From: Natrinema amylolyticum
Lineage (GTDB): Archaea; Halobacteriota; Halobacteria; Halobacteriales; Natrialbaceae
NCBI RefSeq assembly: GCF_020515625.1
Contig: NZ_JAIWPJ010000003.1
Coordinates: 372,001-436,000 of the forward strand
Direction of reading: 5' to 3'
Length of the DNA stretch: 64,000 bases
Shown here in pieces: positions 8,503 to 54,213 of this stretch. The notes beneath the pieces were generated by a model. That model was given only the letters and a program-made list of their open reading frames with translations, was not told where the DNA came from and did not search any database. A program made the position numbers and the translations under genes. Numbering within the stretch: position 1 is the first letter of the stretch; every line of letters starts with the position of its first letter.

Positions 8503-8577
8503 GGGCGCGTAGCTCAGTCCGGAAAGAGCGTCGGACTTCTAATCCGACGGTCGTGGGTTCAAATCCCATCGCGCCCG
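8503..8577 (+). tRNA. tRNA-Arg (anticodon TCT)
   Basis: The acceptor stem GGGCGCG pairs with CGCGCCC. There are a D-arm (AGCTCAGTCCGGAAAGAGC), an anticodon stem TCGGA/TCCGA closing the loop CTTCTAA (anticodon TCT), and a T-arm GTGGG-TTCAAAT-CCCAT. The discriminator base is G and there is no intron. It decodes AGA. The 3' end is repeated downstream (see the scar entry). Confidence 0.95.
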
Positions 8578-8606
8578 TACAGCGAACGAAGTGAGCGAAC
8601 CGGCAC

Positions 8607-8785
8607 GTGGGATTCGAATCAGGGAGGAGCTTTGCTCCGACCGTGGTTCAAATCCCATCGCGCCCGCTCGCTGTCGCGAACAATTCGTGAGCGACAGCAG
8701 TACAACGAGATGGCATTTGAACGAGACGAGTCGCGCACAGCGTAGCGAGCACGTCTCGTCGTTGTTCATAATCCCATCGCGTCCG
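8607..8785 (+). repeat. Degenerate copies of the tRNA-Arg 3' end separated by hairpins
   Basis: The last 22 bases of the tRNA (GGTTCAAATCCCATCGCGCCCG, at 8556-8577) recur exactly at 8645-8666, and again at 8764-8785 with one inserted base and one substitution. A weaker T-arm-like piece (GTGGGATTCGAATC) is at 8607-8620. Between the copies lie hairpins: GGAGC-TTT-GCTCC (8626-8638), GCTGTCGC/GCGACAGC (8670-8698), and a longer pair with ACGAGACG/CGTCTCGT arms around 8730-8762. This is the appearance of an attachment site used repeatedly, but no integrase gene is present. Confidence 0.7.
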
Positions 8786-8932: not shown

Positions 8933-9085
8933 ATGAGCCTGACTACCGACGACTTCGCCGAATTCATGGCCGGCGACCCGGAGGACGAGGAAACGGTTCC
9001 GCTGGGTGATGCGCTCAACGAGCTGGCCGTCGACGTTGAGGGTGACGCTGTCGAGGCGGTCCGTGACGTCCGCGAGCAGATATGA
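8933..9085 (+). CDS. Small acidic antitoxin of a VapBC-type pair
   Basis: This 50-residue ORF begins MSLTTDDFAEFMAGDPEDEE and ends EAVRDVREQI. Its last four bases overlap the start of the PIN-domain gene (ATGA), the usual order and coupling of antitoxin and toxin. The protein is very acidic and helical, with no obvious AbrB, MazE or ribbon-helix-helix DNA-binding motif, so the VapB-type role rests on context. No RBS stands out; the ATG at 8933 gives the whole helical unit. It could also be a truncated antitoxin. Confidence 0.65.
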   Translation: MSLTTDDFAEFMAGDPEDEETVPLGDALNELAVDVEGDAVEAVRDVREQI

Positions 9086-9471
9086 AGCTCTTTCTCGATA
9101 CAAATATTATAGTCGCCGCGGTCACCAAGGATACTAACCGATCCGAAATCGCCGTTCAGGCACTCAATGAGTTCGATGAGACGTATACCTCCGTACTGAA
9201 TCTCATGGAGCTTCGAACTGTTTTGACCAAAAAGAAGGCATTCGAACGGGATCGCGTCGAACAGATCGAACAGCGCATCAGCTCCCGAACCACCGTTACA
9301 TTCCCAGATGCCTCCGATATGGTCGCGGCAAATCAACTGCAGGATGACACGCTCCTCTATCCGATGGACGCCCTCGTACTCGCAGCTGCTAATGCAATCG
9401 ATGCAACTCTCGTCTCTTTCGACGCTGAGTTGCGAGAGCATGGCGCGAAGCACCCACAAGATCTCATTTAG
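9082..9471 (+). CDS. vapC: PIN-domain ribonuclease toxin of VapC type
   Basis: The 129-residue protein is a single PIN domain. It begins MKLFLDTNIIVAAVT with the first catalytic Asp (D6), followed by Glu43 in LMELRTVL, Asp96 in MDALVLAAA and Asp114 in SFDAELREHG, the four-acid metal site of PIN nucleases. VapC enzymes cleave tRNA or rRNA and are neutralised by the upstream antitoxin. Third-position A/T is more frequent here than in neighbouring genes (codons such as AAA, ATT, AAT), consistent with recent horizontal gain next to the tRNA scar. The pair stands alone, with no other mobile genes visible. Confidence 0.9.
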   Translation: MKLFLDTNIIVAAVTKDTNRSEIAVQALNEFDETYTSVLNLMELRTVLTKKKAFERDRVEQIEQRISSRTTVTFPDASDMVAANQLQDDTLLYPMDALVLAAANAIDATLVSFDAELREHGAKHPQDLI

Positions 9472-54140: not shown

Positions 54141-54213
54141 TGGGATCGCCCGGATTTGAACCGGGGTCACGGGCACCCAAGGCCCGAAGTATACCAAGCT
54201 AACCCACGATCCC
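54141..54213 (-). tRNA. tRNA-Pro (anticodon TGG)
   Basis: Minus-strand acceptor GGGATCG pairs with CGATCCC and the discriminator is A. The anticodon stem CGGGC/GCCCG closes CTTGGGT (anticodon TGG), and the T-arm is CCCGG-TTCAAAT-CCGGG. It reads CCA and has no intron. Confidence 0.95.

What the first reader, a model, noticed from the sequence alone, without database searches (positions are those of the whole stretch)
8503..8785. tRNA-Arg with serial 3'-end copies and hairpins downstream
The last 22 bases of tRNA-Arg(TCT) appear again, exact at 8645-8666 and degenerate at 8764-8785, each preceded by hairpins. The pattern suggests repeated integration and excision or stacked short modules at a tRNA attachment site. 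No integrase gene remains. A VapBC-type pair lies next to it.
Basis: seen in the sequence. Interest (0 to 1): 0.6.

Follow-up and report, generated by a model that had tools for sequence, protein, structure and literature searches.

The report
Hairpin repeats copied behind tRNA genes
Salt-loving archaea carry, behind many of their tRNA genes, small stacked hairpin units whose two arms copy the end of the very tRNA gene they sit behind; species gain and lose these units often, and nobody seems to have described them or knows what makes them.

Summary
Behind tRNA-Arg(TCT), two units (8578-8666, 8667-8785) each end in a copy of the tRNA's last 20-22 nt. Each also holds an INVERTED copy of its T-arm, with a variable stem-loop between the two copies. 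In this genome 18 of 46 tRNA genes carry such units (control 9 of 460). A covariance model finds units in 114 of 116 haloarchaeal genomes, and in 1 of 124 other genomes of the phylum sample, borderline. A pattern scan of 84,980 species hit only Halobacteria, 52 of 55 matches right behind a tRNA gene. Related species show empty, single and double states. Neighbouring units are not close copies of each other, and the tRNA-proximal copy is usually the most faithful (12 v 1). Integrase remnants are a poor fit: a real integrase-borne element here has a 42-nt core and displaced a pre-existing unit. Y1 transposase and Cas1 are not required. Best reading: a non-autonomous, tRNA-docked palindromic element added serially and lost by recombination; its enzyme, and any RNA role, are unknown.

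The parts
8503..8577 (+). tRNA-Arg(TCT), host gene; last 22 nt at 8556-8577
   Evidence: ARAGORN; Rfam RF00005
8578..8666 (+). unit 1 (89 nt)
   Evidence: model R1 match 8599-8666, 62.4 bits (this unit was in the training set)
8607..8618 (-). unit 1 inverted arm GTGGGATTCGAA, reverse copy of T-loop + 3' T-stem
8619..8644 (+). unit 1 inner stem-loop cassette (family TCAGGGAG...CGACCGT)
   Evidence: fold
8645..8666 (+). unit 1 direct copy of tRNA 3' end, exact 22/22
8667..8785 (+). unit 2 (119 nt)
   Evidence: model R1 match 8702-8785, 68.2 bits (in the training set)
8667..8701 (+). unit 2 left hairpin (GCTGTCGC..GCGACAGC)
8709..8722 (-). unit 2 inverted arm GATGGCATTTGAAC
8723..8763 (+). unit 2 inner stem-loop cassette (family GACGAGTCGC..ACGTCTCGTCGT)
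8764..8785 (+). unit 2 direct copy, 5 of 22 ungapped mismatches

Best explanation
[quoted passage not shown] Shown: each unit (about 67-195 nt) is a left hairpin, then an inverted T-arm copy, a short-footed stem-loop ([N]AGA ... GCGT[N]), and a direct copy of the tRNA 3' end. Both arms match the host tRNA; units differ between close species; tRNA-proximal copies are the most faithful. Inferred: units are added one at a time at the intact tRNA, duplicating its last ~20-22 nt; older units are pushed outward and decay; units are lost or fused by recombination between repeated arms; the folded single strand is what is recognised. The enzyme is unknown and would act in trans.
For: Genome-wide: copies behind 18/46, 20/44 and 17/41 tRNA genes in three genomes of one genus, against 9/460, 8/440 and 8/410 for other tRNA tails. 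Distribution: 114/116 haloarchaeal genomes; 22 of 24 Halobacteria against 1 of 124 others in a phylum sample. Location: all 55 pattern matches are in haloarchaea, 52 behind a tRNA. Clean one-unit differences between two close species at Ser(GGA), Ile(GAT) and Arg(GCG), with the 20-nt repeat at both ends. Polarity 12 v 1, 5 ties. Adjacent units 0.71/0.72 alike against 0.65/0.67 for unrelated arrays, so not mainly tandem duplication. Different inner cassettes inside the same Arg(TCT) left arm.
Against: No mobilising enzyme was found. Counts do not follow tyrosine integrases (rho -0.15) or Y1 transposases (rho 0.09), and Cas1 is absent from this genome. At Ser(GGA) a related cassette in the window's own genome suggests loss, not gain, in the empty species. 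Lys(CTT) and Met(CAT) differ by a unit whose break lies between inverted arms, as simple recombination would give. No unit was seen in viruses. An element present in nearly every genome of a class may be functional rather than parasitic.
Confidence: 0.5

Rival explanations
1. Cis-acting RNA: the units are trailers of the tRNA transcript that fold into minihelix-like hairpins and serve termination, 3' processing or protection of the tRNA; selection keeps the hairpins and the T-arm copies.
For: Present in 114/116 genomes and in tRNA-sense orientation at the matches checked. Inner stems covary (5 of 5 pairs with double changes). A short-arm unit at Arg(GCG) shows 4 of 7 inner pairs with double changes in 11 hand-picked species. 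Many units begin with a T-run.
Against: Presence at a given tRNA is erratic among close species (0/1/2 copies in 12/11/6 of 29 at Ile(GAT)). Where the direct copy has mutated, the inverted arm still matches the tRNA, not its partner (27 of 37; 5 of 37 paired), so outer pairing is not being repaired. Most tRNA genes have none. The excess of G-U over A-C expected of RNA was not decisive.
Confidence: 0.25
2. No mobile element: ancient palindromes behind tRNA genes, reshuffled by ordinary recombination, replication template switching and quasi-palindrome correction, with the tRNA gene acting as donor by gene conversion.
For: Several differences are phase-shifted fusions between repeated arms (Lys(CTT), Met(CAT)). 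The double changes in inner stems are what self-templated correction would produce. tRNA+unit tandem duplications occur at Gly(GCC) and Asp(GTC).
Against: Near-identical inner cassettes recur behind different tRNA genes, each with arms fitted to its own tRNA. The direct copy is far more faithful than the inverted one (37 against 257 differences in 1704 sites). Clean proximal one-unit differences exist.
Confidence: 0.17
3. Remnants of repeated integration and excision by tyrosine integrases.
For: tRNA 3' ends are favoured archaeal att sites, with cores as short as the acceptor end for SNJ2 (PMC8371274, passages). Tyrosine recombinases are in all 116 genomes.
Against: Shared hairpin architecture at 27 tRNA labels. 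The real integrative element here has a 42-nt core and lies upstream of an existing unit. Unit number does not follow integrase number. None in phage or viral collections.
Confidence: 0.08

Closest known systems
Casposons (family 2, tRNA-targeting; casposase = Cas1 homologue)
   Same: Insert at tRNA 3' ends and duplicate part of them. The A. boonei casposase reads TCAAATC, a T-loop word also present in the arms here, upstream of a 14-15 bp duplication (PMC6614799, passages).
   Different: No cas1 needed (not found in 68 of 116 genomes, this one included). No genes inside; the repeat here includes the T-loop; an inverted tRNA arm lies inside the unit.
Integron attC cassettes
   Same: Arrays next to a fixed site. 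Imperfect hairpins with an outer box, unpaired spacer, inner box and variable end (PMC2727003, passages).
   Different: No gene cassettes, no integron integrase known; the outer box is tRNA sequence and differs by host tRNA.
Haloarchaeal short mobile repeats (SMR-A) and PATEs of Haloquadratum
   Same: About 110 bp, non-coding, palindrome-linked, mobiliser unknown for SMR-A (PMC3119063, passages).
   Different: SMR-A target PATE/IS605 palindromes and make no target duplication; these units sit behind tRNA genes with a ~20-nt duplication.
E. coli tyrT/rtT repeats (recalled; one search gave no description)
   Same: Serial repeats each holding the last ~19 bp of a tRNA gene.
   Different: One locus, near-identical tandem repeats; here many tRNA genes and dissimilar neighbouring units.
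Bacterial REP/REPIN elements with RAYT
   Same: Small palindromes mobilised in trans (search listing only).
   Different: Not tied to tRNA genes as far as recalled; Y1-type transposase is absent from 35 of 116 genomes that still hold 4-32 units.

Membership tests
Integrase-borne element at a tRNA | integrase gene between att repeats | tested here: not met
   units are 67-195 nt and non-coding; a true case in this genome has PF00589 and a 42-nt core
Casposon / Cas1-dependent | cas1-family gene in the genome | tested here: not met
   PF01867 in 48 of 116 genomes, not in G000 (29 units); G068 has 2 and no unit at E<=0.01
Casposon / Cas1-dependent | duplication of the tRNA 3' end | tested here: met
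   about 20-22 nt direct repeat in clean occupied/empty pairs; casposon value 14-15 bp
IS200/IS605-derived (PATE, REP) | Y1 transposase available | tested here: not met
   35 of 116 genomes lack PF01797 yet hold 4-32 units
Integron attC | folded hairpin with outer and inner boxes separated by an unpaired spacer | tested here: met
   (17 pairs, 85.9% of cells paired, covariation score reached by 0 of 500 shuffles)
Integron attC | IntI integrase with cassette genes | not tested
   IntI not searched specifically; the units hold no genes
Haloquadratum SMR-A | no target duplication, insertion into PATE palindromes | tested here: not met
   behind tRNA genes with duplication
Known Rfam RNA family | match to a curated model | tested here: not met
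   only tRNA matched above gathering score (16 loci); window locus

The most novel reading that the evidence does not exclude
Halobacteria run a tRNA-templated array system: an unidentified enzyme makes each new unit on the spot from the tRNA gene, copying its 3' end both directly and inverted around an exchangeable hairpin cassette. The unit enters at the tRNA-proximal end, so each tRNA gene carries a polar record of past events, as CRISPR or integron arrays do.
Probability: 0.2. Interest if true: 0.88.

Novelty: new variant of a known kind. Interest (0 to 1): 0.7.

Why it matters
If right, nearly all haloarchaea share an undescribed repeat family that rewrites the flank of essential genes, fits itself to each tRNA, and turns over between close species. 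It would give tractable organisms (for example Haloferax volcanii) in which to look for a new recombination activity on folded DNA, or a new layer of tRNA 3'-end biology. It also warns annotators that a tRNA 3' repeat in haloarchaea is not by itself evidence of a provirus.

Tried and rejected
Integrase remnant: rejected as main reading. Y1 transposase and Cas1 as necessary movers: rejected by absence in unit-rich genomes; genomes with Y1 have slightly more units (median 20 v 14, p 0.04), no rank correlation. Carriage by viruses: no match to the window array in phages; pattern scans of viral contigs gave 0, 0 and 3 chance matches inside coding-like DNA without tRNA. Plasmids: one match, behind tRNA-Val(CAC) on a Natronorubrum bangense megaplasmid. 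Tandem duplication as the main source: adjacent units too dissimilar. DNA versus RNA by G-U counts: inconclusive (3 G-U, 1 A-C in 372 cells; tRNA acceptor stems 18 of 889; p 0.22). Stable-DNA-loop idea (RC-GNA-GY words in 74 of 93 cassettes): suggestive only; the regex also catches non-apical words and the stability claim is recalled. Novelty searches: searches found no description, in an open-access library only; one search was for attC background.

Rows dropped or chosen: R1 was built from 27 of 42 collected units, 19 of them from this genome, so own-genome hits are partly circular. Units judged spurious were left out by hand, but the tailoring test printed there still held one spurious Gly row. 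One search dropped copies that belong to a neighbouring whole tRNA gene; one G026 tRNA-Asp copy is counted for both tandem genes. One search used 142 of 154 units. The short-arm alignment used 11 hand-picked of 29 species. R1 counts per genome are capped because only the best 39 (or 30) candidates were scored.

Full report
WHAT IS IN THE WINDOW. tRNA-Arg(TCT) lies at 8503-8577. Its last 22 nt recur exactly at 8645-8666 and, with 5 of 22 ungapped mismatches, at 8764-8785; nothing else in the window comes closer than 6. Two units follow the tRNA: 8578-8666 (89 nt) and 8667-8785 (119 nt). Each unit also holds an inverted copy of the T-loop and 3' T-stem (8607-8618 GTGGGATTCGAA; 8709-8722 GATGGCATTTGAAC), so that inverted arm, inner stem-loop and direct copy form one long imperfect hairpin. 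The nearby VapC-like PIN protein (9082-9471) is real, and a small ORF overlaps its start (8933-9085, no Pfam match). No integrase showed up among the ten window proteins scanned; the rest of the window was not scanned.

IT IS GENOME-WIDE. I collected the tRNA genes of the window's own genome and searched 600 nt downstream of each for its own 20-nt tail. 18 of 46 have at least one copy (29 copies); tails of other tRNAs hit 9 times in 460 tries. Two related genomes give 20 of 44 and 17 of 41, with controls 8 of 440 and 8 of 410. The same plan recurs everywhere: a left hairpin that often starts with a T-run, an inverted T-arm, a cassette with feet [N]AG(A/G) ... (G/C)CGT[N], then GTTC and the direct copy. 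An alignment of 27 units shows 85.9% of cells paired and covariation above all 500 shuffles; slid controls are far lower. Part of the outer-helix signal follows simply from both arms copying the tRNA.

IT IS CLASS-WIDE. A covariance model from those 27 units gives 31 matches at E<=1e-3 in this genome (one match per place and strand kept); 28 lie within 600 nt downstream of a tRNA on the same strand, where 0.3% of positions lie. Of the other three, one follows tRNA-Pro(CGG), which the family search had missed, one follows a displaced tRNA-Gly(TCC) end, and one lies 1,177 nt behind tRNA-His. 19 of the 27 training units come from this genome, so the independent tests matter more. In a phylum sample 22 of 24 Halobacteria match, and 1 of 124 others, with one match at E 0.0026. 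Of 34 fetched class loci, 33 have the tRNA just upstream; the last has an uncalled tRNA-like 3' end there. An exact pattern run over 84,980 species returned 54 stretches with 55 matches, all in records titled as haloarchaea; 52 lie behind a tRNA and 3 sit too near the locus edge to tell. Rfam has no model for it: only tRNA matched.

THE ARMS ARE FITTED TO THE HOST tRNA. Over 154 distinct units at 27 tRNA labels, the inverted arm's T-stem part has 246 mismatches to its host tRNA, against 327 at best in 2,000 permutations of hosts. In 142 units scored at 12 sites each, the direct copy differs from the host at 37 of 1,704 sites, the inverted arm at 257. Where the direct copy differs, the inverted arm still equals the host in 27 of 37 cases and its partner in 5. 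So both arms derive from the tRNA and the inverted one lags behind. The outer pairing is not being repaired site by site, which speaks against a pure RNA-hairpin constraint on the arms.

TURNOVER. Two close species (G026 and G007; 39 tRNA genes paired) differ by exactly one unit at Ser(GGA) (149 nt), Ile(GAT) (140 nt) and Arg(GCG) (143 nt), with the tRNA 3' repeat at both ends. At Lys(CTT) and Met(CAT) a unit-sized difference breaks between inverted arms instead, as recombination would do. At Ile(GAT), 12, 11 and 6 of 29 congeneric genomes have 0, 1 and 2 copies. At Arg(GCG), 15 of 29 have a unit first behind the tRNA, 12 do not and 2 are unclear (my reading). At Arg(TCT), 12, 15 and 3 of 30 loci have 0, 1 and 2, and the same left arm encloses different cassettes in different species. 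In arrays of two or more, the first copy is closer to the tRNA in 12, farther in 1, equal in 5. Neighbouring units are hardly more alike than units of other arrays. Gain and loss are not polarised at most loci; at Ser(GGA) loss in one species is likely.

WHO MOVES IT. A genuine integrative element of about 13 kb with a tyrosine integrase (PF00589) sits in tRNA-Gly(TCC) of this genome. Its shared core is 42 nt, from anticodon loop to 3' end, and a unit lies just beyond its far end, so the unit was there first. Across 116 genomes unit counts do not follow tyrosine integrases (rho -0.15, p 0.11) or Y1 transposases (rho 0.09, p 0.34), and 35 genomes without Y1 hold 4-32 units. Cas1 is found in 48 of 116 and not in this genome. 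No unit was found in phage records or viral contigs (one search gave three chance matches). The mover is therefore unknown, or is a ubiquitous host activity.

MECHANISM I COMMIT TO. Serial addition at the intact tRNA 3' end with duplication of its last ~20-22 nt, decay outward, and loss or fusion by recombination between the repeated arms (0.5). Shown: anatomy, fit to the tRNA, polarity, polymorphism. Inferred: insertion as the source of new units, recognition of the folded strand, an enzyme in trans. The RNA rival (0.25) keeps its weight because the family is nearly universal in the class and inner stems covary, even among close species, although self-templated repair of palindromes could do the same.

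NEAREST KNOWN THINGS. Casposase also reads the T-loop word TCAAATC and duplicates 14-15 bp of a tRNA 3' end (PMC6614799, passages), but cas1 is not required here. Integron attC hairpins have a similar box-spacer-box-variable end (PMC2727003, passages), but carry gene cassettes and use IntI. Haloquadratum SMR-A repeats are similar in size and also lack a known mover (PMC3119063, passages), but target other sites without duplication. The E. coli tyrT repeats (recalled only) are a one-locus likeness. Nine literature searches in an open-access library gave no description; subscription papers were not searchable, so prior description cannot be excluded.

Noticed in passing
L140 (own genome C2:461400-475400): About 13-kb integrative element in tRNA-Gly(TCC) with a PF00589 integrase and 42-nt att core; it displaced a hairpin unit to its far end.
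   Followed up: partly
L337-L365, behind tRNA-Arg(GCG): A second, short-arm unit type whose arms are only the last 9-10 nt of the tRNA (GTCCTGACG..CGTCAGGAC); inner stem shows double changes in 4 of 7 pairs over 11 picked species, and its order relative to the long-arm unit varies.
   Followed up: partly
L343, L353, L355, L358, L361: Further palindromic stretches sit inside the loops of units, as if hairpins insert into hairpins (compare SMR-A into PATE palindromes).
   Followed up: no
window 8764-8785; L040; L160, L167: The T-loop variant GTTCATAATC (one base longer) recurs in decayed copies behind different tRNAs (Arg TCT, Thr CGT, Lys CTT).
   Followed up: no
G068, G071: Two near-complete haloarchaeal genomes without a unit at E<=0.01 (weak matches only at E<=1), although sister species carry several; useful for finding a missing factor.
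   Followed up: partly
window 8933-9471: VapBC-like pair: PIN-domain toxin 9082-9471 overlapping a 50-aa ORF with no Pfam match; no link to the units seen.
   Followed up: partly
L043, L181, L203: tRNA-Gly(GCC) and tRNA-Asp(GTC) are duplicated in tandem together with their units.
   Followed up: no
window 54141-54213: tRNA-Pro(TGG) in the same window has no unit at E<=1 in this genome, though a relative (G026) has one.
   Followed up: yes
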